Assembly (NCBI GenBank): GCA_017465845.1
Contig: JAFTVH010000001.1
Coordinates: forward strand, 1-45,526
Direction of reading: 5' to 3'
Length of the DNA: 45,526 nt
DNA from: Lachnospiraceae bacterium
GTDB taxonomy: Bacteria > Bacillota > Clostridia > Lachnospirales > Lachnospiraceae
The notes under the pieces were generated by a model that worked only from the letters and a program-made list of their open reading frames with translations, was not told where the DNA came from and did no database searches. Positions 6,674 through 45,526 of this stretch are shown in pieces. A program made the translations under genes and the position numbers. Position 1 is the first letter of the stretch. The number at the start of each line of letters is the position of its first letter.

Positions 6674-6743
6674 TTTTAGGGTTGATTTGTTTATGTTTTT
6701 CTGGTAAACCATATTTAGGTGCTATCATAACGGTAGGCGGTTA

Positions 6744-6759: not shown

Positions 6760-6807
6760 AATGCATTTCGGTGCTATGTGGCAGGCACTTAAAAATCTGG
6801 TCCGAGT

Positions 6808-16862: not shown

Positions 16863-18246
16863 TTGATATCTTTCAATCACACAATCATGCTTTTTTGTCT
16901 TAACATCATAGTTAATTCCTACCAAAAGGATATCACCACCATAATTTTTAATTGCCTGCGCATACCTATTATCTTTTATCTGATTAATTGCTTTATCACT
17001 TGACTTATTCCATTTTAATTCAACAATCATGGCTGGTTTATCAGATGATTTATTCTATCGTTGCCGCCAAAAGTTCATCGGAAGCAAGAATGGCTTTTAC
17101 AAGTTCAGGCCGCGCACCGTTTCTTACTGCGCGAATAAATTCTTCTCTAACCTCTTCATTAGGAATAAATACTTCTTTGTTCTCTGTATCATATGCAAGA
17201 TAACCAAGATGCACCAACAGAGTAAATACATCATCTTTGCTTTCAAATGATGTCATATCATTTTGAAAAGTTCCAACGTCAATCTTGCATCGCTGACCAC
17301 CAAGCATATCAACAATTGCAGTTCTCAAGCCGTCAAAATCCATGTCGATATAAAGCTTCAATGACTCATATGTCTCTGTCTGTGTCCAGTAATTGCTGAA
17401 TTCCCGATGGAGAATTGCTTTTATAATGGAATTAGGACTATAAACATGACCAATGCTTTCAAAGCGGTAACCATCATACCACTTTCTTGCTTCATCAAAA
17501 TTAAGATCATACTTTTTACACAAACCGCATACTTCTTCTTCCGTAAAACCAACATATCCGGCCAATGGTCCGGGCTGAAGCATAGTATATTCGTAAAAGT
17601 CCGTCAGAGCCGATTGGGTGCCATACTTTTTGATAGGTAGAATGCCTGTCATATAAGCACCGGCAACAAATCGTGAAATTTGTGCACCTTTAAACAATCC
17701 ACGTAGAAGCTGAATATATGCTTTCTGGATATCCACATCATCTTTAGCTTCCCTAAACAGTGCATCCCATTCATCTATCACAATGAAAAATTTTCTTCCT
17801 GTCTGCGCACTGATTTGCAAAAGCGCTTTAGGAAGAGTTCTTGTTCCGGCCTTAATACACCCTGGGAAAGCCTCATCAAGTTCTTCTATCACATCATTTT
17901 GAATATCCGAAACGGTATCTTTTATTTCGCTTGTATTAGAAATAAACCAGGAAATATCAAGAAACAATACATCATATTTATTAATATAATGGTTATAGTT
18001 ATCTATCTTGGCAATTTTTAGTTTTTCGAATAAATTTCTCGAATCTGCTCCTTTTGAATAGTAAGCAACGATCATTTGAGCTGCAAATGATTTTCCAAAT
18101 CGCCTAGGTCTGCTGACACAAGTCAATTTCCGGGCACTCTCAAGTACACTATTTATATACGCAATCAATTCTGTTTTATCGACATATAATCCTGTATTCA
18201 GGACATCCTTAAAGCCATCTGCCGGTGGATTTAAATAAACACCCAT
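16857..18246 (-). pseudogene. Broken AAA-ATPase/PD-(D/E)XK gene with internal deletion
   Basis: Close relative of the intact gene at 43942. The frame from ATG 18246 (MGVYLNPPADGF, GGAAAGGAG upstream) reads through the ATPase domain, with RPRRFGKS and IVIDEWDALFREAKDD, and stops at 17050 after LASDELLAATIE. Downstream, in another frame and without a start, 17040-16857 still encodes the family C-terminus: KPAMIVELKW, then AINQIKDNRYAQA, LLVGINYD, and the final RYQR. Compared with the intact copy, some 67-69 codons between LLEATI and KPALIVE are missing, and the reading frame is lost at about 17045-17050. The missing part includes the nuclease aspartate (GFADIAFLP). The ATPase part could still be made as a 398-residue truncated protein. 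Confidence 0.85.
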
Positions 18247-31085: not shown

Positions 31086-31091
31086 AAAACC

Positions 31092-32510
31092 CTATCTTTC
31101 CAGTTTTATTATATTTTCTATTGCACCATCTTTATGAATTCCAAAACTGTAATTCACACCTTCCGCCTGCAAAACATAATCACCGTAAAATCCACGAAAA
31201 TCCACTTTTCCGTTTTCATCCGTCACCAGTTCCAGGTCGGTATGCCATTCTTCTTCGAAAAGTTCCTTCAATGCCAGTGCCGCCTTCTTAGGTGTTAAGT
31301 CACGATGGAATAATCCACCATGAACTCTGTTCTCAGTACTGATTCCATCAGGCTTTATGTACGCCATTCCATCCACTGTATTCCAATAAACTACCGATTC
31401 CATGCCGGGAATAGAGAACCAGAGGCGATACAGGTGACGCAGAATATCTGCCTGCAGTTCCTCTGCCTCCTCATCCTCACCAAAAGTGGGAATCGTCACT
31501 TCCGTAATCTCCAGAGGCTTTCCGAATTCCGCCAGATATCCCAGACCATCGAGTACTTTTACAGGATCAAAATACTGCAGAAACTTAAAGATTTCCGTTT
31601 CCTGGGGGCCTCTGGTACCACAGAATATATGATTCTGTATACCAATTTTGTCAATGGATGCCCCTTTCAATAGCAGACCTTCAATGTACATGAAATATGG
31701 ACTGCGGTAATCCTGCTCCGCAATTTCCGGTACACGGTTACTCTCGTTAATAACCAGTGTATCCTCCGGAAAATATTTTCTGGCCAGCTGATACGCCCAA
31801 AGAGGAGTATCTCTCTTTTCACACAAAACAGAGCATGTATCTCCCCATTTCCATTCATCCAATAGTTCATTAGTTACTTCAAATTCATACAATTTTCCTG
31901 AATAACGCTCAGCAATCTGCTCAAAACGTTTTTCATAAAGTTCCTTCATTGCCTTTTCATCCCGTTTAGGAAGCCATGAGGGAATGAATTTATCGTAAAA
32001 CAAGCAATGCAGTTTAGGCAAAATGCCGTGCTCGTTGCAATAATCTACGCACAAATCCGGTGCAGGCCTACGGTAAATTTTCGGGCTATCCGCTGCAAAA
32101 CGCAGTTTTCCCTGTTCCGGCTCCAGTTCGGCCCAGTAGAAAGGAACTGTGGCAAGATTAAAATATTGATGGAATGTATCCCGGAAAATTTGATTTTCCT
32201 CTTCCGTCTTAAATTCATCCAGGAGAAAAATGTTGGCACCATATTTAAAGTCATGTGTTTTTTGCTGTATACGTACACGCTTTCCGCTGAGAGGAGTCCC
32301 GTTTTGATCGGTCAACTGCAGGGTACAATCGCCCTTTCTATATTTTTCAATAGAAGGCTCCACACGTTGCGTAAACAATTCCTTGTTTTCTTCAAATTTT
32401 TTCATACACAGCATTCTATAAGCCTTATTTTTCTGCTTCGCATCGCCAGATGCCAGCATTTCTTGAATTTTCTCTTTATCCAGGGTTGATTTTGTTGATC
32501 CAATGCTCAT
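31092..32510 (-). CDS. GH10-like endo-beta-xylanase family protein, copy 1
   Basis: A 472-residue glycosidase of the GH10 type without signal peptide. An N-terminal helical segment leads to a small beta module (GDCTLQLTDQNGTPLSGKRVRI), followed by KYGANIF and the catalytic barrel. Counting from the ATG at 32510, the acid/base is E215 in YEFEVTNELL and the nucleophile E337 in LEITEVTIP. A C-terminal domain of about 60 residues closes it. GGAGG lies nine bases before the chosen start; an ATG three codons upstream directly abuts that site. Intracellular GH10 enzymes normally act on imported short xylo-oligosaccharides. It is about 93% identical to the copy at 36419 (roughly 35 differences by eye), and both keep the catalytic residues. 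Confidence 0.85.
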   Translation of the reverse strand: MSIGSTKSTLDKEKIQEMLASGDAKQKNKAYRMLCMKKFEENKELFTQRVEPSIEKYRKGDCTLQLTDQNGTPLSGKRVRIQQKTHDFKYGANIFLLDEFKTEEENQIFRDTFHQYFNLATVPFYWAELEPEQGKLRFAADSPKIYRRPAPDLCVDYCNEHGILPKLHCLFYDKFIPSWLPKRDEKAMKELYEKRFEQIAERYSGKLYEFEVTNELLDEWKWGDTCSVLCEKRDTPLWAYQLARKYFPEDTLVINESNRVPEIAEQDYRSPYFMYIEGLLLKGASIDKIGIQNHIFCGTRGPQETEIFKFLQYFDPVKVLDGLGYLAEFGKPLEITEVTIPTFGEDEEAEELQADILRHLYRLWFSIPGMESVVYWNTVDGMAYIKPDGISTENRVHGGLFHRDLTPKKAALALKELFEEEWHTDLELVTDENGKVDFRGFYGDYVLQAEGVNYSFGIHKDGAIENIIKLER

Positions 32511-32526
32511 TTCTATCATCCTCCAA

Positions 32527-34722
32527 TCATAATTTTTTTAAGGAATACACAAACGCGCTATATTGTGGCTGTGTATGGGGAAGCAGGAGTCCGATATTGA
32601 TCAGAGCAGCGCCACTCAATATCTGACCTGTCTGTTCCACTTTATAAAGGCTCTCACCTTCCAAACCTCGCAAACGAACATAACTGTTTTTATCAATAAT
32701 AGAAATATCTTCTGTCACTACACATACAAGGCTTTCTTCGCCACTCTTTGACACAAACTGCCATGCAGTATAAATACTCTCATCATAGGGTGAGGACAAA
32801 CGATAATAGTCTCCTGACCTTATCAGTTCTTCATTCTTTCTGTAAAACTCAGAATAGACTGCACACTCTTCTCTCTCCTGCTCATTCATTTTGGCCGGAT
32901 CCAATTCGTAGCCAAAGGTACCATGCATCGCTGTGACAGCCCTGGTTTTAAGCGGTACCGTCCTGCCTGTCTTTTTATTCGGACACACTGAGACATGGGC
33001 TCCCATAGTACTTACCGGATAAACAAAAGAAGTTCCATATTGAATAGTCAGCCGGGATGGTGCATCGGTATTATCACTACACCAAATTTGAGGGAAATAG
33101 GTAAGCATAGCTCCGTCAAATCGTCCGCCTCCCCCACTACAGCCCTCAAACAAAATATCCGGGTGGGTCTTGACGATACCATCCAGAATCCGGTACAGTC
33201 CCAGGATATACCGATGATAAATTTCCCCTTGTCTCTCCGGTGGATAATATTGACTGTACACATCGCATACATAACGGTTATAATCCCATTTCACATAGTC
33301 CACACCGCCTGCATCCAGGATCTGGTTCACCGCTTTAATCAGATAATCACATACATCCGGTCCGGACAGATCAAGGCACAACTGATGGCGACTACGTGAA
33401 GGTGCTCTGCCGGGTACCTGCAGGCACCAGTCCGGGTGAGCGCGATAAAGGTCAGAATCCTCGTTAACCATTTCCGGTTCAAACCAGAGGCCAAAAGACA
33501 TTCCAAGGTCATGAATCCTGCGGGCAAGTACAGGAATACCGCCCGGAAGCTTCTTTTCATTTGCCACCCAATCTCCCAGTCCCGCTTTTTCATGATCTCT
33601 TGCACCAAACCAACCATCATCCAAAACGAACATATCCGCGCCCAACTGTCTGGAAATTTCTGCAGTGCTTAACAGTTTTTCACTGTCAAAAGAAAAGTGG
33701 AACGGTTCCCAACTGTTAAGCACAATGGGACGTCTCTCGTTTACAAAACGGCTTTCGCAAGCATTCTGTCTGAAAATATCATGATAGCTGTGACTCAGTT
33801 TTGCCAATCCCTCTCCGGAATACGCCATCACAACCTCCGGTGCTTCAAAACATTCTCCTTTGTCCACCAGATAATCAAACTGCTTGGGGTGTATCCCCAT
33901 TGCCACACGCGTTTGGCTATATCCGTCCACTTCTGCATCAAACACAAAATTACCGCTGTACATCAGAGCAAATCCATAAGCATTGCCTTGATCCTCATCA
34001 GTATTTCTGTCGCACACAATAGCAGATGGATTGTGGAAATGGCCGGATACCCCACGGAAAGATCCCAGTTCCTGAATGCCATGTGTCAGATGGTGTCGTT
34101 CGGTCTGCCGTTCAAAATAATGATGCCCGAAAAAGCCGATCAGATCAAAATCACTTGTCATAAAATCAAGGCTTGCAGACATCATTCGCTGCAGATGAAT
34201 ACCTTTTGCTGATCCATTATAGAGAATTGCAGCTCTGGTAATTACATCTTTATCATAAAATACCCCATAAAGAAGTTTTACAGATATATGGGTAATTTCA
34301 TCTTTCAGTATAATTTCCAGTGTCTCCACATTTTCCTTTTCTGCAGCATAAAGTGTCGGAAGTGAGGAAAGGCGATACTTTCCATGATATATTTTGTGTG
34401 AATGGTACTTTCCCACAAAAGCATAACTTCCATCAGCATTGACTATTTCTATAGAAGGAATACGATAGTCCCCTGCATCATTGGAGGAAAATTCCTGGGG
34501 ATATGCACACAACGAATAGACACGGTCCTCTCCCACTTCTGCCGGATTGGACTCATGACTTCTAACAACATGAGGAATCAGATAAGATACATCTTCATCC
34601 GAAATCTTTTTACCATAGTACAAATGTAACAAATGCCCATACTCTGACACTTTCATCTGATAAGTGCTGTTTGCAGTATGGATACTAAATACATGCTTTG
34701 TTTGATTATATATAATAGACAT
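32527..34722 (-). CDS. Alpha-galactosidase, GH36
   Basis: A 731-residue GH36 enzyme that releases terminal alpha-galactose, for example from raffinose-type or galactomannan fragments. Landmarks in order: WEPFHFSFDSEKLL (338-351), FVLDDGWFGAR (365-375), GLWFEPEMVNEDSDLYRAHPDW (411-432), nucleophile D480 in YVKWDYNRY, then EGCSGGGGRFD (526-536) and acid/base D550 in CSDNTDAPSR. The size and motifs match tetrameric AgaA-type enzymes; no signal peptide. It lies between GH10 copy 1 and the AraC relic. The corresponding place in the right unit holds only about 30 bases, so this gene was inserted here or lost there. Its ATG follows GGGAG. Confidence 0.93.
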   Translation of the reverse strand: MSIIYNQTKHVFSIHTANSTYQMKVSEYGHLLHLYYGKKISDEDVSYLIPHVVRSHESNPAEVGEDRVYSLCAYPQEFSSNDAGDYRIPSIEIVNADGSYAFVGKYHSHKIYHGKYRLSSLPTLYAAEKENVETLEIILKDEITHISVKLLYGVFYDKDVITRAAILYNGSAKGIHLQRMMSASLDFMTSDFDLIGFFGHHYFERQTERHHLTHGIQELGSFRGVSGHFHNPSAIVCDRNTDEDQGNAYGFALMYSGNFVFDAEVDGYSQTRVAMGIHPKQFDYLVDKGECFEAPEVVMAYSGEGLAKLSHSYHDIFRQNACESRFVNERRPIVLNSWEPFHFSFDSEKLLSTAEISRQLGADMFVLDDGWFGARDHEKAGLGDWVANEKKLPGGIPVLARRIHDLGMSFGLWFEPEMVNEDSDLYRAHPDWCLQVPGRAPSRSRHQLCLDLSGPDVCDYLIKAVNQILDAGGVDYVKWDYNRYVCDVYSQYYPPERQGEIYHRYILGLYRILDGIVKTHPDILFEGCSGGGGRFDGAMLTYFPQIWCSDNTDAPSRLTIQYGTSFVYPVSTMGAHVSVCPNKKTGRTVPLKTRAVTAMHGTFGYELDPAKMNEQEREECAVYSEFYRKNEELIRSGDYYRLSSPYDESIYTAWQFVSKSGEESLVCVVTEDISIIDKNSYVRLRGLEGESLYKVEQTGQILSGAALINIGLLLPHTQPQYSAFVYSLKKL

Positions 34723-34741
34723 ACTATAAATTCTCCCAACA

Positions 34742-34813
34742 CTATTTTCTGTTTTTTCGATGCTCTAGCGGAGATTGTCCTGTAACCTGGTGAAATCTTC
34801 TGCTAAAACTTGC
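34742..34813 (-). pseudogene. Relic of the C-terminus of a membrane AraC regulator
   Basis: Read on the minus strand, this stretch encodes SFSRRFHQVTGQSPLEHRKNRK and a TAG. That is nearly the exact end of the intact regulator at 37871-40033 (SFSRRFRQITGQSPLEYRKNRK). Nucleotide similarity to 37866-37938 ends abruptly at about 34813. It has no start or upstream domain. The flank toward the alpha-galactosidase (ACTATTTTCTG) also matches the intact copy. It marks where a second copy of the regulator gene was lost. Confidence 0.85.
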
Positions 34814-34855
34814 TCTGATCTTTAAAAGCTTCAGACTTCGGAGAAGCCATAAAAA

Positions 34856-36010
34856 TTATATTTCAGGTATTTCTATTTGCACTTCATGCCCCAGCTTACT
34901 GGATTTCATGATACCATCAATAATCGCCTGATTATATAATATCTGACAGGTAGGCACAGGCGCTTTCCCTCCGGTAATTACTGCATCCAGAAACGACCTG
35001 ATCTTTTTATCAAACAACTCTCCATCTGAAGGTATCAGCGGAACCTCTATCTGTGAAGGCAGACCTGCCACATCACGATAAACAGTCATAGGTTTGTGGA
35101 AAGTTCCGTTCCAACAATCTGTAGAAGGTATCCGCAGAGCACCTTTGGTACCCATAATGATGGTATCACCGGGCGTATCAAGATGCATATACCACGCAAT
35201 ACGGAAATCCAGAACAATATCTCCTTCCAGACGGATATACGCTGAAGCAAAGTCATCAACACTGAACATTTCTGCGCACTCCGGTTTATTTACCTTAGCA
35301 TAGGATGAGGGATCTTTTCCGAAATAATCTGTCATTTGTCCTGACACTGTAAGCGGCTTCGGATATCCCAGGGCATTCAGCACAAGGTCCAACGAGTAAC
35401 ATCCGATATCACCCACAGCACCGATTCCTGCCTTTTCTTCCTCAATGAAAGTAGTACTCCAGCTGACAGGGATGCCATGGCGACGACCGCCACCCGTCTG
35501 TATATAATATACCTTACCCAGTTCTCCGGATTCTACTATTTTTTTGATCATTTGCATATTTCCATCAAAACGAGGCTGAAATCCCACTGATACGATTTTG
35601 CCGCTCTTTTTTTCTGCCCTGCAGATTTCCACCGCCTCATCAAGGGTCACCGTCATGGGCTTCTCCAAAAGTACCGGCAGACCATGCTCCAAAGCATATA
35701 TCGTGCACTCTTTATGAGTACTGTTATAGGTGCAGACACTGACCGCATCAAGATCCATGGTATCAATCATCTCCCTGTAGTCTTCAAATGCTCTGGCTTC
35801 CACACCATGCCTCTCAAAAAATTGTGCCGCTTTACCGGGAATCAGGTCTGCACCGGCAACCACTTCTGCATCCCGCTGTTTTAAATAACTCTTTATATGC
35901 GAATTAGCAATACCACCGGTACCTATAATACCTATACGGAGCTTTCTGCTGCTGCAGACTGCTTCTTTCTCTGTCATATCTGTCGAAAAATCATTTAAAT
36001 CTAATGCCAT
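34856..36010 (-). CDS. Gfo/Idh/MocA family oxidoreductase
   Basis: NAD(P)-dependent sugar oxidoreductase of 384 residues. The Rossmann fold begins RIGIIGTGGIANSHIK (25-40), the EKP motif with catalytic K117 lies in LPVLLEKPMTV, and the active-site segment reads D201-I-G-C-Y205. The tyrosine replaces the histidine of inositol dehydrogenases, as in glucose-fructose oxidoreductase-like members. The first 20 residues are an extra tail. The ATG follows GAGGAGG. It is the first gene behind the retained promoter at 36116-36144 and heads the operon oxidoreductase, alpha-galactosidase, GH10, six-hairpin protein. Oxidation of a released sugar or of an intact glycoside is plausible; the substrate is unknown. 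Confidence 0.88.
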   Translation of the reverse strand: MALDLNDFSTDMTEKEAVCSSRKLRIGIIGTGGIANSHIKSYLKQRDAEVVAGADLIPGKAAQFFERHGVEARAFEDYREMIDTMDLDAVSVCTYNSTHKECTIYALEHGLPVLLEKPMTVTLDEAVEICRAEKKSGKIVSVGFQPRFDGNMQMIKKIVESGELGKVYYIQTGGGRRHGIPVSWSTTFIEEEKAGIGAVGDIGCYSLDLVLNALGYPKPLTVSGQMTDYFGKDPSSYAKVNKPECAEMFSVDDFASAYIRLEGDIVLDFRIAWYMHLDTPGDTIIMGTKGALRIPSTDCWNGTFHKPMTVYRDVAGLPSQIEVPLIPSDGELFDKKIRSFLDAVITGGKAPVPTCQILYNQAIIDGIMKSSKLGHEVQIEIPEI

Positions 36011-36026
36011 AATATTTATCCTCCTC

Positions 36027-36071
36027 TTAACTTTTTACAGATCCAATCATCATTCCTTTTACAAATATTTC
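36027..36071 (-). pseudogene. Relic of the C-terminus of an LplC-type permease
   Basis: On the minus strand this encodes EIFVKGMMIGSVKS and a stop, matching the last residues of the intact permease at 40077 (KYFVKGMMIGSVKG). A one-base deletion lies near its upstream end. At 36071/36072 it joins directly to sequence matching the region 22 bases upstream of the binding-protein gene. The binding protein and first permease are gone, and so is all but the tip of the second permease. Confidence 0.8.
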
Positions 36072-36230
36072 GGACCGTTCCTCTTCTTTTCCGGATTGTC
36101 CGTGTGCACGATCATATCTTACATAAGCAGATGTATTTTGTAAATATACATTTTTTATTATCTGAAATTTTACACAACGTCCACTTTTTTACACATTCGT
36201 AAATATGCATATTTTATTTTGTTTCACCGT
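36072..36230 (-). promoter_or_regulatory. Duplicated promoter/operator region now serving the oxidoreductase operon
   Basis: It closely matches 43668-43850, upstream of the binding-protein gene. The promoter is conserved: TTTACA (36139-36144), 17 bases, TAAGAT (36116-36121) on the minus strand. Two operator-like copies remain: TTTTGTAAATATACA (36136-36150) and ATTCGTAAATATGCA (36195-36209), 59 bases apart. The first overlaps the -35. The oxidoreductase start is about 100 bases downstream, past the permease relic. Confidence 0.7.
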
Positions 36231-36257
36231 TACTGCAGGAATCCTGTCCTTAGATGA

Positions 36258-36308
36258 AAAGAGAGTTGTAAACATCACTGAATTAACAGATGGTTCACAA
36301 CTCTCTTT
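36258..36308 (-). terminator. Intrinsic terminator between the two duplicated units
   Basis: AAAGAGAGTTGT (36258-36269) and ACAACTCTCTTT (36297-36308) form a 12-bp perfect stem with a 27-base loop that can pair partly. On the minus strand the distal arm runs into TTTTC. It would stop transcripts of the right-unit operon after GH10 copy 2 and insulate the left promoter. The plus-strand reading also ends in a T-rich stretch. Confidence 0.7.
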
Positions 36309-36309
36309 A

Positions 36310-36416
36310 TTCTTTTATCTGGCAGATTGCTCCTTGCGCAGATTTATCCCATTTTAACTCGACAATCAGCGCCGGCTAATAAACTTGCATCCTGCTGTTT
36401 CGGCAATTTGGGCAAG
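36310..36416 (-). pseudogene. Scar of a third AAA/PD-(D/E)XK gene
   Basis: Two pieces of the gene now at 43942-45522 are fused. 36311-36376 matches about 44067-44132 (the part encoding the E-x-K strand and following helix) with one mismatch. 36377-36416 matches about 45070-45109 (the Walker B region) with one mismatch. The roughly 940 bases between them are missing, as are both ends of the gene. It then abuts GH10 copy 2. Confidence 0.88.
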
Positions 36417-36418
36417 CC

Positions 36419-37837
36419 CTATCTTTCCAGTTCTATTATATTTTCTATTGCACCATCTTTATGAATTCCGAAACTGTAATTCACGCCTTCCGCCTGCAAA
36501 ATATAATCACCGTAAAATCCACGAAAATCCACTTTTCCGTTTTCATCCGTCACCAGTTCCAGGTCAGTATGCCATTCTTTTTCGAAAAGTTCCTTCAATG
36601 CCAGTGCCGCCTTCTTAGGTGTTAATTCACGATGGAATAATCCTCCACGAACTCTGTTCTCGCTACTGATTCCATTAGGCTCTACGTATGCCATTCCATC
36701 CACTGTATTCCAATAAACTACCGATTCCATGCCGGGAATAGAGAACCAAAGGCGATACAGGTGACGCAGAATATCTGCCTGTAGTTCCTCTGCCTCCTCA
36801 TCCTCACCAAAAGTGGGAATCGTCACTTCGGTAATCTCCAAAGGCTTTCCGAATTCAGCCAGATATCCCAGCCCATCAAGTACTTTTACGGGATTAAAAT
36901 ACTGCAGAACTTTAAAGATTTCCGTTTCCTGAGGCCCCCTGGCGCCGCAGAAAATGTGGTTTTGTATGCCGATTTTGTCAATGAATGCCCCTTTCAAAAG
37001 CAGTCCTTCAATGAACATGAAATATGGACTGCGGTAATCCTGCTCTGCAATTTCCGGTACACGGTTACTTTCATTGATAACCAGTGTATCCCCCGGGAAA
37101 TATTTTCTGGCAAGCTGATAAGCCCAAAGAGGAGTATCCCTCTTTTCACACAAAACCGAACATGCATCGCCCCAATTCCCTTCATCTAAAAGTTCATTGG
37201 TTACTTCAAATTCATACATTTTTCCTGAATAACGCTCTGCAATCTGGCTAAAGCGTTTTTCGTAAAGTTCCTTCATTGCCTTTTCATCCCGTTTAGGGAG
37301 CCATGATGGAATGAATTTGTCGTAAAACAGGCAATGCAGTTTAGGCAAAACGCCGTACTCGTTACAATAATCTACACACAAATCCGGTGCAGGTCTACGG
37401 TAAATTTTCGGGCTATCTGCTGCAAAGCGTAGTTTTCCCTGTTCCGGCTCCAGCTCAGCCCAGTAGAAGGGAACCGTGGCAAGATTAAAATATTGATGGA
37501 ATGTGTCCCGGAAAATTTTATTTTCTTCTTCCGTCTTAAATTCATCCAATAGAAAAATGTTAGCACCATATTTAAAGTCATGTGTTTTCTGCTGTATACG
37601 TATCCGCTTACCGCTGAGCGGAGTTCCGTTTTGATCAGTCAGCTTCATGGTACAATCGCCTTTTCTATATTTTTCAATGGCAGGCTCCACACGTTCCGTA
37701 AACAGTTCCTTGTTGTTTTCAAATTTTTCCATACAAAGCATTCTATAAGCCTTATTTTTCTGCTTTGTATCACCAGACAATAGCATTTCCCGAATTTTCT
37801 CCATATCATGGGTTGACTTTGTTGATTCAATGCTCAT
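36419..37837 (-). CDS. GH10-like endo-beta-xylanase family protein, copy 2
   Basis: A 472-residue paralogue of the protein at 31092-32510, with the same length and layout: N-terminal helical segment, beta module GDCTMKLTDQNGTPLSGKRIRI, GH10 barrel with E215 in YEFEVTNELL and E337 in LEITEVTIP, and a C-terminal domain. No signal peptide. The start at 37837 lies behind GGAGG at nine bases. Substitutions cluster in the N-terminal 65 residues and on loops such as DEGNWGDA (DEWKWGDT in copy 1), near the acid/base, which could shift specificity. It is the last gene of the intact uptake operon, directly behind the regulator gene. Confidence 0.86.
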   Translation of the reverse strand: MSIESTKSTHDMEKIREMLLSGDTKQKNKAYRMLCMEKFENNKELFTERVEPAIEKYRKGDCTMKLTDQNGTPLSGKRIRIQQKTHDFKYGANIFLLDEFKTEEENKIFRDTFHQYFNLATVPFYWAELEPEQGKLRFAADSPKIYRRPAPDLCVDYCNEYGVLPKLHCLFYDKFIPSWLPKRDEKAMKELYEKRFSQIAERYSGKMYEFEVTNELLDEGNWGDACSVLCEKRDTPLWAYQLARKYFPGDTLVINESNRVPEIAEQDYRSPYFMFIEGLLLKGAFIDKIGIQNHIFCGARGPQETEIFKVLQYFNPVKVLDGLGYLAEFGKPLEITEVTIPTFGEDEEAEELQADILRHLYRLWFSIPGMESVVYWNTVDGMAYVEPNGISSENRVRGGLFHRELTPKKAALALKELFEKEWHTDLELVTDENGKVDFRGFYGDYILQAEGVNYSFGIHKDGAIENIIELER

Positions 37838-37870
37838 GCCTATTATCCTCCAATTATAATTTTTACCACA

Positions 37871-40033
37871 CTATTTTCTGTTTTTTCGATACTCTAACGG
37901 AGATTGTCCTGTAATCTGACGAAATCTCCTGCTGAAGCTTCCCGCATTATAATATCCCACTTCCAGTCCGATTTCCGCAGCAGTAATATCAGTGTTTTCC
38001 AGCAGATATTTCGCGCGATTGATTTTTAGCTCCGTAACATAATCATTAATAACGATTCCGCTTTTTTCATGAAAATACTTGCTCAATGCAGGTAAACTCA
38101 TGCCATATTTCTCCGCCATTTCCTGAAAAGAGAAATTAGGGTCATTATATCGCTCTGCGAGATATTGCTTCATTTTATCTATCACAGGGATACTCTTTGA
38201 TTCCGGTTCGCCGTGATTATTAGCCTCTTTCGCAAAAAAGTCTGAGAGCTCCTTAAGATAAATAAAGTAAAAATTCTTCTCACGGTTCTTAAACAATAAT
38301 AGGATATCTGCCTTTTCTACCGGATTCATTATGTATTCTTTCACATCTGACAATATATATGTCAGGTTCATGCATACGTACTGATTCCAATACAATTCTT
38401 TCTCCCGACATAATTCCAGTAATCTGTTTAAATAGGATTCCGCTTTCCGCCAGTTACCTGCTTTGATCTGCTCCTGTATATACCTGCATTCCGCCACCGG
38501 AAGCTGCTTCTCTTTTTCGTCGTCCAGCCAAAGGATGCCTTTTTGCTTGCCTGTCATTTCATCCAGTATGGCTGCCCTGATAAATCCCATCGGCACCTGT
38601 TCAATATCATAACATTTTTCACTGGATGATATTTTACCGATACTGCTGTCCGTTTTTAAAATTGCCTCAAGCTGTTCATTGAGAGAGGACACCGCTGTAT
38701 GACTCATATTCCAGATAACCACAAATCGCAGTCCATGCTCCAATTCCTTTACCACGAAACTGACATTGGTCATTTTACAGCTCTGCAGATACTCAACAAG
38801 TTCTTCTTCTGAAAGTGAATAATTCATACTGATTACCGTTACATACAATATGCCGTCATACATACCAAAATCAAGCATATTATAGACAAGATTACGTTCT
38901 TCTGCTGTACGCAGTTCCCCCCGCAGTAATTTTGCAATCAGGTAGCTTCGATAGTTTTTAACCTGTTCCTGAAGAAACAGACTTTTCTCTTCCAGATATT
39001 CCATGGAGGCATTAATAAAGTCATACACGCCTTCGTCTTTACCGCCGTTTCTACCATATATTTTCTCTGCTCTTTCCTTAATCTCATGAATCGGTTTATA
39101 AATCAGAGCACTCAAACAAGAGACAAACACTGCCCCGGAAATCAGAAGCAGTGCAATCAAAGCCATCCACAATCTTGTTTGAAATTCCACCTGTTTTGAC
39201 AGGCTGTCCCCACTTATCACATTGATAAATTCATAGTTACTCACTTCGGAGACCGCTCTGGACACCACGTAATTAGTTCCACCGTATGAAACAATGTCAC
39301 AATCATCTTTGGCGGAGTTTATGATTTTCTCATATTGCTCCTGTTTAAGCTCTCCGTCATTGCTTACAAAACTAAGAGCGTTTCCCTCATTATCCACAAT
39401 ACAGGACATACCGATCCCATCACTTAACTGCTCCTGCATGATTGCTTCAATTTTGCTAATGTCCACAACGAATATGACACTGACGGAATGTCGAAACGTT
39501 TTACTAAATCTGCTGAAAAGCTTGTAAGGATGCCCCGAATTTATGGCATCCAGATTCTGAAAAGCTTCGCTTTCCAGATATTCAAAAAATTTCTCCTCAC
39601 TCTTGTCTGCTATTTGGTATAGTTTGCAAAAAATATGTTTATGGCAGGAGCCGCTTGACGAAAATAGATATTCGTTTCCACTCTGATAAACAAAAATATC
39701 CGATATATATTTCTGATTCAGGGTAAGCATATCCAGCTTTGAAGAGATTCTTCGAGTTCCCAGGAAATCGCTGGGTACAAGTATTGCTCCGAAATCATTG
39801 TCCATAAAGATACTATTGGCTGCATCTTCCATATTTTCCAAAAGCAGATCCAGTTCTTTTACAACTGTACTTAACCGATTCTGGGATACTCTCAATATAT
39901 AATTATCCATCTGCTTAATATATACATTCTGTACAAACACGATAATTAGCAGACATGGAAAGATCAGGATGGCAAAAAATGAAATTAATATAGTATGAAA
40001 ACCCTGTGTTTTTTTCTTTAACAATTTTTTCAC
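37871..40033 (-). CDS. Membrane-anchored AraC family regulator
   Basis: A 720-residue one-piece sensor and transcription factor. The first membrane segment is at about 13-33 (TILISFFAILIFPCLLIIVFV). An extracytoplasmic sensing region of about 250 residues follows, then a second segment at about 286-307 (LWMALIALLLISGAVFVSCL) and a HAMP-like YKPIHEIKERAEKIYG. After a cytoplasmic linker, the C-terminal 100 residues hold the AraC HTH pair (FSFQEMAEKYGMSLPALSKYFHEKSG; ITAAEIGLEVGYYNAGSFSRRFRQITGQSPLEYRKNRK). The GTG start at 40033 follows AGGAGG. Such regulators sense an external oligosaccharide, sometimes via the binding protein, and activate the adjacent uptake operon. Confidence 0.88.
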   Translation of the reverse strand: MKKLLKKKTQGFHTILISFFAILIFPCLLIIVFVQNVYIKQMDNYILRVSQNRLSTVVKELDLLLENMEDAANSIFMDNDFGAILVPSDFLGTRRISSKLDMLTLNQKYISDIFVYQSGNEYLFSSSGSCHKHIFCKLYQIADKSEEKFFEYLESEAFQNLDAINSGHPYKLFSRFSKTFRHSVSVIFVVDISKIEAIMQEQLSDGIGMSCIVDNEGNALSFVSNDGELKQEQYEKIINSAKDDCDIVSYGGTNYVVSRAVSEVSNYEFINVISGDSLSKQVEFQTRLWMALIALLLISGAVFVSCLSALIYKPIHEIKERAEKIYGRNGGKDEGVYDFINASMEYLEEKSLFLQEQVKNYRSYLIAKLLRGELRTAEERNLVYNMLDFGMYDGILYVTVISMNYSLSEEELVEYLQSCKMTNVSFVVKELEHGLRFVVIWNMSHTAVSSLNEQLEAILKTDSSIGKISSSEKCYDIEQVPMGFIRAAILDEMTGKQKGILWLDDEKEKQLPVAECRYIQEQIKAGNWRKAESYLNRLLELCREKELYWNQYVCMNLTYILSDVKEYIMNPVEKADILLLFKNREKNFYFIYLKELSDFFAKEANNHGEPESKSIPVIDKMKQYLAERYNDPNFSFQEMAEKYGMSLPALSKYFHEKSGIVINDYVTELKINRAKYLLENTDITAAEIGLEVGYYNAGSFSRRFRQITGQSPLEYRKNRK

Positions 40034-40076
40034 TATAATTACCTCCTGTTTTCAGCAGAGCACCCGGCATCTACTG

Positions 40077-40973
40077 TTACCCCTTGACAGACCCGATCAT
40101 CATTCCTTTTACAAAATATTTCTGAAGGAACGGATACAATATGAGTACCGGCAGACTGGAAAAAATAATAATTGCATATCTCATGGAATTGGCTAATTGC
40201 TGCATAACTGACTGTGTTTCGGGATCCACCATATCATCCGGTGAAAACTGATTACTCAGCAGAATCTCACGTAGTATAACCTGAAGCGGAAATTTTTCTC
40301 TTTCGGTAATATACATTAGGGCATCAAAATAAGAATTCCAGTGACCCACACCGTAAAACAGCACCAGAATAGCCACTAACGTGCTGGACAAGGGCATTAC
40401 AACTTTGCGGAAAAATCCTAATCTGCCGCATCCGTCTATCTGTGCAGCCTCATATAGTTCTTTCGGTATATTACTTTCCAGAAAAGATCTGGCAATCATC
40501 AGGTTATATGCGTTTACCGCACAAGGAATGACCATAACCCAGAAACTGTTAATTAAATGGATATCCCTCATTAAAAAGTATTTCGGAATAATTCCTCCGC
40601 CAAAGTACATGGTAAACGTAATTAAGAATAATATAACTCTTCTTCCATACAATTCCCTTACTGAAAGCGCATAGGCGGCAGTCATCGTCATAAATATGTT
40701 CAGAATCGTTCCTATCACTGTATAAAGAATTGTATTTTTATATCCTATAAACAGGTTCTCATTTGAAAATGTCCGCTCATATCCCAGAAACGTGATCCCT
40801 TTGGGCAGCAAACCAATCTTTCCCTGATAAACCAGTGTGGGATCGCTGAAAGAGGCAATTACTACAAAATAAAGCGGATATGCCACTATCAGGAAAAAGA
40901 CAACCAGAATAGTCGTATTCACACTATGAAAAATCCTGTCATTTTTGGACAGTTTTATTTTTTTCTTATCCAT
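40077..40973 (-). CDS. Carbohydrate ABC transporter permease, LplC/YtcP type
   Basis: A 298-residue inner-membrane subunit of the importer encoded here. It has about six membrane segments, the EAA loop YEAAQIDGCGRLGFFRKVVMPL (about 187-208), and the LplC tail YFVKGMMIGSVKG. It follows the LplB partner by 13 bases and precedes the regulator gene. The last 14 codons survive as a relic at 36027-36071 in the left unit. No ATPase gene is present, so a shared MsmK-type ATPase is expected elsewhere. Confidence 0.92.
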   Translation of the reverse strand: MDKKKIKLSKNDRIFHSVNTTILVVFFLIVAYPLYFVVIASFSDPTLVYQGKIGLLPKGITFLGYERTFSNENLFIGYKNTILYTVIGTILNIFMTMTAAYALSVRELYGRRVILFLITFTMYFGGGIIPKYFLMRDIHLINSFWVMVIPCAVNAYNLMIARSFLESNIPKELYEAAQIDGCGRLGFFRKVVMPLSSTLVAILVLFYGVGHWNSYFDALMYITEREKFPLQVILREILLSNQFSPDDMVDPETQSVMQQLANSMRYAIIIFSSLPVLILYPFLQKYFVKGMMIGSVKG

Positions 40974-40986
40974 TATTACTACCTCA

Positions 40987-41916
40987 CTAATAAACTGAAT
41001 TATCTGAAACCTTTCTGGCTATTGTATTTACCGTAACCAACAAAATAAAATTCACAATAGAGTTAAAGAGACCTACTGCTGTTGAATAGCTATATTGCGC
41101 CTGCACCATACCGACTTTATAAGTATATGTAGAAATAACTTCCGCCGTAGAGGAATTCAGTGAATTGGACATCAGAAATACTTTTTCAAAGCCAATGCTT
41201 AAAACATTACCTACATTCAAGATCAGCAGCATAATTACCGTATTCATAATTCCCGGAATATCCACATATCTGATACGCTGCATGATGGTTGCGCCATCTA
41301 CGATAGCAGCCTCATGAAGCTCCGGACTGATACTGCTCAATGAACCAATATAGATAATGGCCGACCATCCAAGATTCTGCCATACACCCGACCAGACATA
41401 CAAATGGGGGAATGCTTCCGGAGAAGCCATAAAATTGAACTCCTGTCCTCCCAAAGCCTTTATCGCTTGATTTACGAAGCCACTTCTTGTTGATAAAAAT
41501 AATGAAAGCATGGCTACCATAACTACTGTGGAAATGAAATGCGGCGCATAGGATACCGTCTGCAATACCTTGGCAAATTTTCTGTTCCTGCAATAGTTCA
41601 GCATCAGCGCAAATGCAATCGGAAGCGGTGTGTTCACAATTAAAGAGTATATACTCAATCTAAGCGTATTTAATAATATTTCGATAAAATACGGACTGTT
41701 TAAAAAACGCTGAAAATGCTTGAATCCCACCCAGTCACTTCCCCAAATTCCTTTTGTAATTTTAAAATCACGAAAGGCAATCTGTGCACCATACATAGGA
41801 TAATAATGAAATAGAATAAAAAAGATAAGCGTAGGAAGCAATAGCAGATAAAGTTCCCAGTTTTTTCTGATAATCTCTTTCCACCTTTTCTGTTTTACTT
41901 TAATCTTCTGCGACAT
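40987..41916 (-). CDS. Carbohydrate ABC transporter permease, LplB type
   Basis: A 309-residue partner permease. A basic N-terminus (KIKVKQKRWKEIIRKNW) precedes the first membrane segment LYLLLLPTLIFFILFHYYPMYG, then AQIAFRDFK, with the EAA loop HEAAIVDGATIMQRIRYVDIPG. The ATG at 41916 follows AGGAGG at six bases; the frame stays open 17 codons further upstream without a ribosome site. It lies 85 bases behind the binding-protein gene. The left unit retains no trace of this gene. Confidence 0.92.
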   Translation of the reverse strand: MSQKIKVKQKRWKEIIRKNWELYLLLLPTLIFFILFHYYPMYGAQIAFRDFKITKGIWGSDWVGFKHFQRFLNSPYFIEILLNTLRLSIYSLIVNTPLPIAFALMLNYCRNRKFAKVLQTVSYAPHFISTVVMVAMLSLFLSTRSGFVNQAIKALGGQEFNFMASPEAFPHLYVWSGVWQNLGWSAIIYIGSLSSISPELHEAAIVDGATIMQRIRYVDIPGIMNTVIMLLILNVGNVLSIGFEKVFLMSNSLNSSTAEVISTYTYKVGMVQAQYSYSTAVGLFNSIVNFILLVTVNTIARKVSDNSVY

Positions 41917-42001
41917 AGTAAACCTCCTGATAACAAATTGGGCATATCTTATAAAGGAAGCCAACACAACACTGCATTGGCTCCTTTTCTACTCCTGACT
42001 G

Positions 42002-43645
42002 TTAATTATTCGCTAAATAGCGATCATATGCCTGCTGATGAATTTCCAGATATCGTTCATGACCAAAGTTATTCAGTGTTGCGATATATTCGTCCCACTC
42101 TGCATCTACGTCTCCCTGTCCGCTGATCCATCGGCAAATCGTTTCTTCCTGATATTTTGCAATATCTGTCTTCAGAAGATCAACCTCTTCCTGCTCTTCT
42201 GTCTCCATAATCAATCTGGGATATCCATAATACAGTGCACCGGAATCCACATAAACCTTATCCTGAATAATTTTGTCCTGTACAGAAAATCTTTCATCCG
42301 GAGCCAGCAGACTGCTGTCAACTATCTGCGGTAAATGCTGCAGATGATTGCCGGTTAAGTATTCTCCCAAAGTGCTATATCCCTCAGGCACTGTAGAAAG
42401 ATATCCTTCCTCCGTCTTAACTAACGCAGTATCCAGAGGACCATAGCAACTCTGAAGACTGATGATAGGATCGTACAATGTATCTATCCATCTTGCAAGC
42501 ACTTCAGGATATTCGCAGGCGTTTGTAATATACATAACAGTACTCAAAGAAACATTCACATACGAAGCATAAATACCGCTCTTTCCATCAGGACCGGTCA
42601 AAGGAGGTAAAGTCACATAGCTTTCCTCTGCCACATCGTCTCCAAAAGAATGTCCTGATCTCCAGACAGCACTGCTGCCTACAATTACAGGGTCTTCTTT
42701 ACATTTTGCCATGTAAGTACTCTCTTCCTGTGTAAAAATTTCCTGATCGATCAAGCCTTCTGCGTACAGTTCACGTAAATACTTGATTGCATCCTTCAAT
42801 CCATCTTCACATGCAGGATCAATTACTACGCCATCAACTACAAGCATTCTGTCAGCCAAAGGATAGGTAAATGCCCCTGTTATCATACTTAAACTGGTCT
42901 GCCACTTCCAGCTCACAGCAGAATAAGGAATCTCATCATTAGGATCTCCATTTCCATTGGCATCCTGTTCCTTAAATGCCCGTAATACTTCTCTAAATTC
43001 ATCTGTAGTTGTGGGCATTTCCAAATTAAGATTTTCTAACCAGTCTGTATTGATGCAGACAGCCTGATCCATTCCCATATAATAGTAATCCTTGATTTCC
43101 GGAAATCCATAGATATTTCCGTCAGGATAAGTAAGCTCTGCCAGATATTCTCCCGCATGTTCCTTAAGGTTTGGCATGTATTTATCAATCAGATCATTCA
43201 CAGGTATAATAATTCCATCTTCAAGATATTCGCGTGATATAGAAGGCAGTGTTGTACTACCTGCAACCACAGCATCCGGATATTCACCACTTGCCCACAT
43301 CAGGTTTAATCGTTCTTGCGCACCGTCACCCGCAGGTATGGTTGTCCATTCGATGTGGACATTTGTTAATTCTTCCATCATCTTGAAGAATTCAAATTCA
43401 TTGGGATCTGTTTGAGAAGAAATGGTATACATCTTCAATGTTACTGGTTCATCTACAATAGGATAACCTGTTTCGTTAAAATTAGAATCTTCCTCTTCAC
43501 CGGAACTTGCCTGGGAAGCAGTTTCCTGAGTCTTAGAGTTTTCGCCGGCTGCTGAAGATTCACCATCTTTGCTGCTTCCGCAGCCTGCCAGACAACCGAC
43601 TGCTAATGATAATGCAAGCAATGTTGCTAATACCTTATTTTTCAT
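42002..43645 (-). CDS. Extracellular substrate-binding lipoprotein of a sugar ABC importer
   Basis: A 547-residue lipoprotein. A signal peptide with basic N-terminus and hydrophobic core ends in the lipobox LAGC with C22 as the lipidated residue. A Ser/Glu-rich linker (about 24-55) follows, then a large periplasmic-binding-protein fold of the LplA type (VTLKMYTISSQTDPNEFEFF; ERLNLMWASGEYPDAV). It captures the glycan outside the membrane and delivers it to the two permeases. GGAGGA precedes the start. It is the first gene behind the regulated promoter. Given the GH10 and alpha-galactosidase neighbours, a xylo- or galacto-configured oligosaccharide is a reasonable but unproven ligand. Confidence 0.92.
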   Translation of the reverse strand: MKNKVLATLLALSLAVGCLAGCGSSKDGESSAAGENSKTQETASQASSGEEEDSNFNETGYPIVDEPVTLKMYTISSQTDPNEFEFFKMMEELTNVHIEWTTIPAGDGAQERLNLMWASGEYPDAVVAGSTTLPSISREYLEDGIIIPVNDLIDKYMPNLKEHAGEYLAELTYPDGNIYGFPEIKDYYYMGMDQAVCINTDWLENLNLEMPTTTDEFREVLRAFKEQDANGNGDPNDEIPYSAVSWKWQTSLSMITGAFTYPLADRMLVVDGVVIDPACEDGLKDAIKYLRELYAEGLIDQEIFTQEESTYMAKCKEDPVIVGSSAVWRSGHSFGDDVAEESYVTLPPLTGPDGKSGIYASYVNVSLSTVMYITNACEYPEVLARWIDTLYDPIISLQSCYGPLDTALVKTEEGYLSTVPEGYSTLGEYLTGNHLQHLPQIVDSSLLAPDERFSVQDKIIQDKVYVDSGALYYGYPRLIMETEEQEEVDLLKTDIAKYQEETICRWISGQGDVDAEWDEYIATLNNFGHERYLEIHQQAYDRYLANN

Positions 43646-43711
43646 TCGAAATCCTCCTTCTTAATTTGGACCGTCCCTTTTCTTTTCCGGATTGTTCGTG
43701 TGCACAATTCT

Positions 43712-43740
43712 ATCTTACATAAACAGGTGGTTTTTGTAAA
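43712..43740 (-). promoter_or_regulatory. Promoter of the uptake operon
   Basis: On the minus strand TTTACA (43735-43740), a 17-base spacer and TAAGAT (43712-43717) lie 67 bases before the binding-protein start. Hexamers and spacing are the same in the left-unit copy (36116-36144). The imperfect hexamers suit an activator-dependent promoter. Confidence 0.65.
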
Positions 43741-43829
43741 TGTACATAATTTATTTTGGTGCACATTGGTACAATTTAGCAATATATACATGATTCCGTT
43801 GCGCAATGCTTTTCTTTTGTAAATGTACA
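43732..43829 (-). promoter_or_regulatory. Pair of direct-repeat operators upstream of the uptake operon
   Basis: TTTTGTAAATGTACA occurs identically at 43732-43746 and 43815-43829, starting 83 bases apart, close to eight helical turns. The similarity continues beyond (A-rich TTTATT, then TGCACATT), giving two units of about 40 bases. The proximal copy overlaps the -35 hexamer. This is typical of AraC-type activator sites, and the regulator at 37871 is the obvious candidate. Confidence 0.6.
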
Positions 43830-43941
43830 CATTTTATTCAGCTGCACATTCATCCTTTCGTAACTTTTACCGCAACAAGAAAGAACAGTTTTACGACTTG
43901 TTCAGGTCGCGCAAAGCACTCACGGCTACTCTTTTAATACT

Positions 43942-45522
43942 TCAGTCTGCGCAATACTCATATTTCTCTATTATACATTCATGCTTTTTATTGGTCTTAT
44001 CATAGTTTATCCCTACCATCAGAAGATTGTCTGCATATTCCTCAAGTGCACCTACATACTGCTTATCTTTTATCTGGCAGATTGCTCCCTGCGCAGATTT
44101 ATCCCATTTTAACTCGACAATCAGCGCCGGCTTATTAGTATGCTTTCTCGGCAGAAACGCAATATCTGCAAATCCCTTACCCGCCGGCAATTCTCTGATC
44201 AATGTATAGTCCTTCCGCGCCACATAATAAGCAATCGTGATTACACAGCTTAATGCCTGTTCACTGTTATAAGCAAGCACCGATGTATTTGCCGAATGTA
44301 CTTCATCAATGCCTTTTGCTACTGTCTCTGCATCCCCACGTATTGTGGCCTCCAACAGACTTTCAGAGGCCTGCAATGCGGCAGACACCCCTTCCCAACC
44401 GCTGTACTCCACAGCATTCCTGAACTCATCAGCTACTTCCTGATTAGGAATATAAACCTCCTTCTGAGTAGAATCATAAGCAAGATACCCAAGATGCACG
44501 AGCAATGTCAGAACATCATCTCTACTTTTTAGATTTGACATATCGTTCTGGAATGTCCGCGTATTGATTTTGCACCTTACGCCACCAAGCATAGAGATAA
44601 TTGCATCCTTCAATCCGTCCTCATTCATACCAATATAGTATTTTAAGGATTCATAGGTTTCCGTTTCTGTCCAATAATCGCCCCATTCTTCGTTACTTAT
44701 TGCCTGGATAACAGAGTTAGGACTATAAACCGAATGTTCCTTACTGAAAGAATAGCCATCATACCATCTTCTGGCCTCTTCAAAATCCATATCATTTTCC
44801 CTGCAGAGATCCTTTACTTCTTTTTCTGTGAAACCAACATATTTTGCCAGCTTTTTAGGCTGAATCATTGTATATTCCCTGAAATCAGTCAATGCAGACT
44901 GTGTGCCATATTTCTTGATTGGCAGAATCCCTGTCATATATGCAGCTTCAATCATCTTATCTGTCAGGCTGCTCTTAAAAAGTCCGCGAAGCAGCTGAAT
45001 ATATTCTTTCTGTAAATCCGTATCATCCTTTGCCTCCCTGAACAGAGCATCCCACTCATCGATAATAATAATAAACTTGCATCCTGCTGTTTCGGCAATT
45101 TTGGCAAGCACTATCGGCAGGGAATGTTCTTCTCCGGCAAAACTGTAGATACTACATAACTCCTGAATCACCTGATCCTGAAGATAAGAAACAGTATCTT
45201 TTATATTTTTTACAGTCGATATAAACCAGGTGATATCCAGGTAAATGACGTCAAATTTATTCAGATTTTCCTCAAATGTTTTATCCTTTGCAATTTCCAG
45301 ATCACTGAACAGCTCTCTGGAATCACAGTTTCTATCATAGTATGCACACAGCATCTGTGTTGCAAATGATTTTCCGAATCTTCGCGGTCTGCTGACGCAA
45401 GTCAACTTATCTTTTGTTCCAAGTGTTCGATTTATAAATGCAATTAAACCGGATTTGTCAACATACAGTCCTTTTCGTATTGACCGGAAACCTGCGTTTC
45501 CAATATTTACATACATTCCCAC
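43942..45522 (-). CDS. AAA-ATPase-like / PD-(D/E)XK nuclease family protein
   Basis: A 526-residue protein with all expected parts. The N-terminus is GMYVNIGNAGFRSIRKGLYVDKS, the modified Walker A RPRRFGKSF lies near residue 45, and Walker B is FIIIIDEWDALFREAKDD. An intervening helical region follows. The C-terminal PD-(D/E)XK domain has D453 (GFADIAFLP), E470 and K472 (VELKW), then a conserved QIKDKQY. It appears complete: a GTG at 45522 aligns with the ATG of the related broken gene at 18246, but its ribosome site lies outside the window. The biochemical role is unknown. Pieces of a nearly identical copy remain at 36310-36416. Confidence 0.85.
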   Translation of the reverse strand: MGMYVNIGNAGFRSIRKGLYVDKSGLIAFINRTLGTKDKLTCVSRPRRFGKSFATQMLCAYYDRNCDSRELFSDLEIAKDKTFEENLNKFDVIYLDITWFISTVKNIKDTVSYLQDQVIQELCSIYSFAGEEHSLPIVLAKIAETAGCKFIIIIDEWDALFREAKDDTDLQKEYIQLLRGLFKSSLTDKMIEAAYMTGILPIKKYGTQSALTDFREYTMIQPKKLAKYVGFTEKEVKDLCRENDMDFEEARRWYDGYSFSKEHSVYSPNSVIQAISNEEWGDYWTETETYESLKYYIGMNEDGLKDAIISMLGGVRCKINTRTFQNDMSNLKSRDDVLTLLVHLGYLAYDSTQKEVYIPNQEVADEFRNAVEYSGWEGVSAALQASESLLEATIRGDAETVAKGIDEVHSANTSVLAYNSEQALSCVITIAYYVARKDYTLIRELPAGKGFADIAFLPRKHTNKPALIVELKWDKSAQGAICQIKDKQYVGALEEYADNLLMVGINYDKTNKKHECIIEKYEYCAD

Positions 45523-45526
45523 TGTG

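What the first reader, a model, noticed from the sequence alone, without database searches (positions are those of the whole stretch)
31092..45522. Tandem duplication of a whole glycan-uptake locus, one unit gutted and refilled with new enzymes
Seen in sequence: five homologous landmarks occur twice in the same order. They are the GH10 gene (31092 and 36419), the AraC end (34742 and 37866), the permease end (36027 and 40077), the promoter/operators (36072 and 43668), and the AAA/PD-(D/E)XK gene (36310 and 43942). In the left unit, everything between these landmarks is deleted. An oxidoreductase and an alpha-galactosidase sit in the gaps. Inference: duplication was followed by loss of redundant transport and sensing genes and gain of new catabolic genes under the old promoter. 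This is an unusually legible record of how a sugar-utilisation locus diversifies.
Basis: partly seen in the sequence, partly recalled or inferred. Interest (0 to 1): 0.75.

Follow-up and report, generated by a model that had tools for sequence, protein, structure and literature searches.

The report
Duplicated sugar operon, two complementary halves
Two copies of one sugar-uptake operon sit side by side in this bacterium; one kept the transporter and sensor, the other kept or gained enzymes, and both keep the same control sites, so it is a readable but ordinary kind of gene-cluster evolution.

Summary
In detail: the left (L, 31087-36423) and right (R, 36414-45115) units share six colinear DNA pieces covering all five landmarks. 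L carries only 3' stubs of permease C and AraC, a promoter, and a twice-cut AAA stub.

L lost SBP, permease B and most of permease C and AraC. A paralogous unit (C77: SBP-permB-permC-AraC-GH31) shows the R order is old and lacks the oxidoreductase there, so that gene is probably a gain. The alpha-galactosidase is probably not new: relative L035 has it directly upstream of GH10, as in L, and R matches 10 of its last 11 bases, so R probably lost it.

Nor is it one clean duplication: GH10's 3' third is far younger between copies (7/119 synonymous codons differ) than the rest (69/302), so the side next to the joint was recombined later.

Both promoters keep paired operators; the pattern occurs nowhere else in the 4.19 Mb assembly, so R's AraC may drive both.

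My searches found no single-unit ancestor and no two-full-unit intermediate.

The parts
29241..31085 (-). 614-aa protein with no Pfam or NCBIfam match, starting 6 bp after GH10-L; native flank, not duplicated; a 46% homologue lies near GH10 in L035
31092..32519 (-). GH10-L, open frame of 475 aa
   Evidence: Pfam PF00331; 91.2% DNA identity to GH10-R; dN/dS 0.106 between copies
32527..34722 (-). GH36 alpha-galactosidase (731 aa), absent from R; orthologue directly upstream of GH10 in L035
34725..34811 (-). AraC 3' stub (last 22 codons and stop)
   Evidence: 6 changes on the L side, 1 on the R side, 1 ambiguous against C77
34812..34855 (-). 44-nt filler between oxidoreductase stop and AraC stub; 20 nt of it match permease B out of order
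   Evidence: score 33, best of 200 letter shuffles 32; no such match in the C77 unit
34856..36010 (-). GFO/IDH/MocA oxidoreductase (384 aa), probable gain in L
   Evidence: PF01408; absent between permC and AraC in R and in C77
36021..36074 (-). permease C 3' stub
   Evidence: against C77 1 L-side, 2 R-side, 4 ambiguous changes
36066..36159 (-). L promoter region, 84% to the R promoter, with operator 1 at 36139-36159
36198..36218 (.). L operator 2
   Evidence: 1 mismatch
36311..36423 (-). AAA/PDDEXK stub in two pieces (36311-36380 and 36377-36423) ending in the joint to GH10-R
   Evidence: 4 differences in 113 bases from the intact gene
36419..37837 (-). GH10-R, open frame of 472 aa
37838..37870 (-). 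gap where alpha-galactosidase is missing in R; 10 of the last 11 bases of the L alpha-galactosidase gene are matched here
37871..40033 (-). AraC-type regulator with a large N-terminal region (720 aa)
   Evidence: PF12833; paralogue 64% in C77
40077..40973 (-). permease C
   Evidence: PF00528
40987..41967 (-). permease B
   Evidence: PF00528
42002..43645 (-). solute-binding protein (SBP)
   Evidence: PF01547
43662..43755 (-). R promoter region with operator 1 at 43735-43755
43818..43838 (.). R operator 2
43942..45522 (-). AAA-ATPase_like / PDDEXK_9 gene with open frame, source of the left stub; member of a large family in this genome

Best explanation
One ancestral operon (operator pair - SBP - permB - permC - AraC - alpha-galactosidase - GH10) came to stand in tandem through an illegitimate joint between the interior of the AAA gene and the GH10 stop region. 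The copies then lost complementary genes: L lost transporter and regulator and gained an oxidoreductase; R lost alpha-galactosidase; GH10 was kept in both. Later recombination between the copies (gene conversion or a second unequal exchange) renewed the side next to the joint. Today R encodes import, sensing and one GH10; L encodes GH10, alpha-galactosidase and oxidoreductase, probably running on into the 614-aa gene. Both promoters keep the same operator pair, so R's AraC probably activates both: an operon split in two that is still one regulon. Shown: colinear relics, open GH10 frames under purifying selection, operator copies, paralogous unit, two-age mosaic. Inferred: ancestral content, order of losses, co-regulation, the nature of the later recombination. 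The substrate is inferred only as an oligosaccharide that is imported and cut inside the cell.
For: Six colinear pieces. C77 in the same assembly has SBP-permB-permC-AraC in the same order (72% aa for both permeases, 63% for AraC), permC-AraC gap 46 bp, then a GH31 gene. L035: alpha-galactosidase 386-2590 then GH10 2597-3991, 78.1% and 81.2% aa to L. The R gap matches the alpha-galactosidase 3' end plus the GH10 leader at 17 of 18 bases, reached by 0 of 200 letter shuffles. GH10 copies are sisters with L035 next outside, support 100/99 and 97/95; dN/dS 0.106. AraC stub: 6 L-side, 1 R-side changes. Operator pattern: 4 sites within 2 mismatches in 4.19 Mb, two in each promoter, none elsewhere; the reversed control pattern has 2.
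Against: Alpha-galactosidase did not appear in the other GH10 neighbourhoods compared (L036-L039 and own C191, C168, C104), so a gain before the L035/window split is needed; by bare step count, loss in R ties with two separate gains. L035 shows no transporter block beside these genes, and its genome gave no permease B match at E <= 1e-70, so the block and the enzymes joined after that split. Part of the R-gap match is GH10 leader, expected anyway; the part inside alpha-galactosidase is 11 bases; the matching repeat on the upstream side of alpha-galactosidase is not significant (84 of 200 shuffles). L035 has a same-family oxidoreductase after GH10 (64.5% aa, the highest identity in the tree's rows), which could mean an ancestral gene; the tree places it near but not as sister, without strong support. 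The permC stub shows no excess of L-side change (1 against 2, 4 ambiguous). The AAA stub is as young as the GH10 3' third, which conversion of GH10 alone does not explain. The operator pattern was written from these four sites, so only its absence elsewhere is informative.
Confidence: 0.6

Rival explanations
1. Heteroallelic capture: L and R are two diverged alleles of the same locus. DNA from another strain or species brought one interior in, anchored by homology in GH10 and joined without long homology at the AAA side (or overwrote one unit of a fresh tandem duplication). The gene contents differed before the two met.
For: GH10 is old in its 5' two thirds and young in its 3' third (synonymous 69/302 against 7/119; p 1.8e-5), while L035 differs from both copies by 57-61% in both parts; one change point at codon 327, 1 of 2000 permutations as strong. 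The AAA stub on the other side of the joint is young too: 4/113 against 20/123 for the AraC and permC stubs, p 0.0011. A young joint flanked by old interiors is what capture predicts.
Against: Gene conversion between the two GH10 copies gives the GH10 pattern without a donor. If only L-side changes are counted, AAA (4/113, all taken as L-side) and AraC (6/64) stubs do not differ significantly, p 0.17. GC3 of the L and R genes is alike (0.345-0.415). No donor allele was found.
Confidence: 0.27
2. One reading: simple tandem duplication, then L gutted and refilled with two new enzymes, R unchanged.
For: Relics and order; oxidoreductase absent from R and C77; alpha-galactosidase absent from most compared GH10 neighbourhoods.
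Against: Alpha-galactosidase-GH10 adjacency is shared with L035 and R keeps a trace of it; GH10 two-age mosaic.
Confidence: 0.08
3. Assembly chimera of two strains in a metagenome-like draft.
For: The contig ends in an exact 141-base overlap, the assembly is 85.44% complete in 201 contigs, and the GH10 copies share identical runs of up to 63 bases, which could let an assembler switch copy inside GH10 and so mimic the two ages.
Against: The matched pieces overlap by only 4-10 bases at the joints between promoter, AAA stub and GH10-R, short for an assembler's jump; the AraC, permC and AAA pieces in L are decayed remnants, not full alternative alleles.
Confidence: 0.05

Closest known systems
Operon or gene duplication followed by complementary (reciprocal) loss, as in duplication-degeneration-complementation (recalled concept)
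   Same: Two copies, complementary gene sets, one gene kept in both, regulatory sites kept in both
   Different: Here at the level of a carbohydrate operon, with one gene gained and later recombination at the joint
Homology-facilitated illegitimate recombination arrays in Vibrio cholerae T6SS clusters (PMC5361080; passages seen)
   Same: Proposed incoming module anchored by homology at one end and joined illegitimately at the other; old and new versions stand in tandem
   Different: Different genes and host; here the donor is hypothetical and duplication plus conversion also fits
Gram-positive carbohydrate-utilisation locus: ABC importer without its own ATPase gene, AraC-type regulator, cytoplasmic glycosidases (recalled)
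   Same: SBP-permB-permC-AraC followed by a glycosidase
   Different: Split over two promoters that share operators
Concerted evolution of prokaryotic paralogues (PMC6053082; abstract and outline seen)
   Same: Paralogues more alike, in part, than the rest of their sequence
   Different: Here confined to roughly the last 400 bp of one gene

Membership tests
Tandem duplication of an operon | Colinear homologous segments in direct orientation | tested here: met
Tandem duplication of an operon | A joint fusing the right end of the unit to its left end | tested here: met
   36414-36423, AAA interior fused to GH10 stop region, 5 bases shared exactly
Tandem duplication of an operon | Uniform age of the duplicated parts | tested here: not met
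   GH10 synonymous 69/302 vs 7/119, p 1.8e-5; change point 1 of 2000 permutations
Tandem duplication of an operon | Single-unit relative without the joint | tested here: inconclusive
   none found; these hold one genome per species
Complementary gene loss after duplication | Each copy lost a gene that the other kept | tested here: inconclusive
   met for L: stubs of permC and AraC, no SBP or permB; for R the loss of alpha-galactosidase is inferred from L035 and an 11-base trace
Complementary gene loss after duplication | Shared gene kept functional in both copies | tested here: met
   both GH10 frames open, dN/dS 0.106; enzyme activity not tested
Homology-facilitated illegitimate recombination | Homologous anchor on one side, short-homology joint on the other, foreign interior | tested here: inconclusive
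   mosaic and joint fit; no donor found
GH10 glycosidase | Family profile match above cut-off | tested here: met
   78.5 and 73.5 bits against cut-off 22.1; nearest solved chain for GH10-R 8b73_A, E 3.2e-31
GH10 glycosidase | Xylan-type substrate | not testable with these tools
   needs an assay

The most novel reading that the evidence does not exclude
Two long-diverged alleles of one sugar operon from different strains were brought together in tandem in one chromosome, one supplying import and sensing, the other enzymes, and tied into a two-promoter regulon by operators found nowhere else in the assembly: a split operon made by recombination between alleles instead of by duplication and decay.
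Probability: 0.27. Interest if true: 0.5.

Novelty: new member of a known kind. Interest (0 to 1): 0.36.

Why it matters
It is a legible case of a sugar operon splitting in two: which genes each copy kept, where the cuts fell (matched pieces overlap by 4-10 bases at the joints), which gene was probably gained, and how the halves could stay co-regulated. Because GH10 carries two ages, it also warns that tandem relics should not be dated or read as one duplication without testing divergence along the gene.

Tried and rejected
Looked for the single-unit ancestor. GH10 protein in 61 genomes: 16 of 61 matched at E <= 0.001; the 15 other than the own genome are at 32% identity or less in the listed rows. 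In 397 of the family: 4 of 397 at E <= 1e-60; apart from the two window copies the listed rows are 40-47%. In 392 of the order: 1 of 392, the own genome. In genome contigs: 5 loci, found through six short peptide patterns. SBP in 138 genomes of the genus: 12 of 138 at E <= 1e-60, best other 39%; at most 10 candidates a genome were scored. AraC in 397 of the family: 1 of 397, the own genome; at most 2 candidates a genome were scored. Permease B in 10 genomes reached by 11 handles: 4 of 10 at E <= 1e-70, best 55%. Oxidoreductase in 138 of the genus: 5 of 138 at E <= 1e-100, best other 65%, the own-genome paralogue on C196, where none of the other unit genes was matched nearby except distant AraC- and AAA-type hits. 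None gave a close copy of either unit.

Set aside: alpha-galactosidase as a newcomer. Set aside: the L035 oxidoreductase as proof that the gene is ancestral; it lies on the other side of GH10 and is not the sister branch. R's permC-AraC gap held no significant trace of the oxidoreductase (69, 8 and 9 of 200 shuffles reach the three scores). The 20-nt permease B match after the oxidoreductase stays unexplained. A first, shorter operator pattern with 3 mismatches found three of the four sites and one other in the window; 2 of 100 shuffles had as many. Promoter consensus hits were at chance level (40 found, 40.0 expected), although the same two hexamers are listed at the same place in both promoters. 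Terminator-like hits were 13 against 9.8 expected. The SBP of the C77 unit is cut by the contig start, and no better than 38% match to the SBP's first 366 residues turned up elsewhere. Paper searches: searches returned 0 papers; two searches listed 4 and 6, none on sugar loci by title; most subscription papers are not held.

Full report
CHECK OF THE OBSERVATION. A comparison of 31000-36430 with 36401-45526 gives six colinear same-strand matches covering all five landmarks. In the self-comparison of the window the rows that lie inside 31087-45526 are these and a short match between the two R operators; other rows include the AAA gene against a relative at 16.9-18.2 kb. A search of the assembly with GH10-R DNA finds two matches, at 100% and 91%, both in the window; more distant GH10 paralogues lie on C191, C168 and C104 at 47, 43 and 37% aa.

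ANATOMY. Both units are read on the minus strand. R: operators and promoter, SBP, permease B, permease C, AraC-type regulator, GH10. L: operators and promoter, permease C stub, oxidoreductase, 44-nt filler, AraC stub, GH36 alpha-galactosidase, GH10, then after 6 bp a 614-aa gene without Pfam or NCBIfam match. The joint between units fuses the interior of the AAA gene to the GH10 stop region. The matched pieces overlap by 10 bases at the R gap that lacks alpha-galactosidase, 9 at the promoter/permC joint in L, 4 inside the AAA stub and 10 at the AAA/GH10 joint, of which 5 are exact in all three places. Short shared words of this kind are usual at deletions and duplications made without long homology (established knowledge, recalled).

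WHAT IS ANCESTRAL. The assembly holds an older paralogous unit on contig C77. It has SBP (cut by the contig start), permease B, permease C and AraC in the R order, at 50, 72, 72 and 63% aa identity. There permC and AraC are 46 bp apart with no oxidoreductase between, and the next gene is a GH31 glycosidase. So the transporter-sensor block with a changeable enzyme behind it is old, and the oxidoreductase in L is most simply a gain. For alpha-galactosidase the evidence points the other way. In L035, a roe deer colon MAG, it ends 6 bp upstream of GH10; in L the gap is 7 bp. It is 78.1% identical to the L enzyme, close to the 81.2% of GH10. GH10-L and GH10-R are sisters and L035 is outside. R's AraC-GH10 gap matches 10 of the last 11 bases of alpha-galactosidase plus the GH10 leader, 17 of 18 bases in all, reached by 0 of 200 shuffles. 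Loss from R is therefore the better reading. It is not proved: L036-L039 and the own paralogues show no alpha-galactosidase, L035 shows no transporter block, and by bare counting loss and double gain tie.

TWO AGES. GH10-L and GH10-R differ at dS 0.35 and dN 0.037, so they have been under purifying selection; against L035, 37 differences fall on the L side and 48 on the R side. The divergence is uneven. In the 5' two thirds 69 of 302 shared-residue codons differ, in the 3' third 7 of 119 (p 1.8e-5), whereas L035 differs from L and R by 57-61% in both parts. A single change point lies at codon 327 (1 of 2000 permutations as strong), about 31529 in L and 36856 in R. The AAA stub on the other side of the joint is also little diverged: 4 of 113 bases against 20 of 123 in the AraC and permC stubs (p 0.0011), 13 of 85 in the promoter (p 0.0044) and about 106 of 1017 in the GH10 5' part (p 0.018), and not different from the GH10 3' third, about 17 of 399 (p 1.0). 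If only changes on the L side are compared, AAA 4/113 against AraC 6/64 is not significant (p 0.17). So sequence next to the joint was probably renewed after the interiors had diverged. Gene conversion within an old tandem array explains GH10 but not the AAA stub. Capture of a diverged allele explains both but needs an unseen donor. I keep the first as more likely, because conversion between neighbours is common (recalled) and the AAA evidence rests on few sites.

REGULATION AND FUNCTION. Each promoter has two same-orientation copies of a 21-base operator-like word. With up to two mismatches the pattern occurs 4 times in the assembly, all four here; the reversed control pattern occurs twice. 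L has lost its regulator except a stub, in which 6 of 7 polarised changes fell on the L side; the permC stub shows no such excess (1 against 2). The simplest working model is that R's AraC senses the imported sugar and drives both promoters. This is inferred. No signal-peptide prediction was run; the GH10 N-termini look cytoplasmic by eye. Related GH10 genes lie beside an AraC gene and an importer (own C191) or beside an importer, an SDR, two MR/MLE-type enzymes and an RraA-like protein (own C104). This suggests import of an oligosaccharide followed by cytoplasmic cleavage and, in some loci, oxidation.

NOVELTY. Known kind: operon duplication with differential loss. A tandem layout produced by one-sided homology has a published parallel as a proposed mechanism in V. 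cholerae T6SS arrays (PMC5361080, passages seen). What is good here is the legibility, not a new mechanism. Main limits: a draft assembly, no sister strain, no long-read support.

Noticed in passing
43942-45522; 16863-18246; G000-wide: The AAA-ATPase_like/PDDEXK_9 gene belongs to a large family here: 55 matching stretches in the assembly (some are pieces of one gene), many partial; one in the window at 16863-18246 is split over two frames. A paper whose listing mentions DUF1703 often reports a gene family expansion in a symbiont (PMC6387759, search listing only).
   Followed up: partly
L096 (G000 C77) 1-7173: Older paralogous unit SBP-permB-permC-AraC with a GH31 behind AraC in place of GH10; further along GH88, RraA-like and SDR genes. 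Suggests an importer-sensor block that takes different enzymes.
   Followed up: partly
34812-34855: 20 of 44 filler bases match permease B (41415-41434) although permease B should lie upstream; may be templated filler at a repair joint, or chance.
   Followed up: partly
45386-45526 and L040 7344-7484: Exact 141-base overlap of contigs C138 and C140; C140 carries RNase J-like, U32 peptidase-like and glutamine synthetase-like genes (named by eye, not by search), so the right flank may be ordinary chromosome.
   Followed up: partly
29241-31085: 614-aa protein without Pfam or NCBIfam match, 6 bp after GH10-L and near GH10 in L035 (46% aa); candidate uncharacterised enzyme of the same pathway.
   Followed up: no
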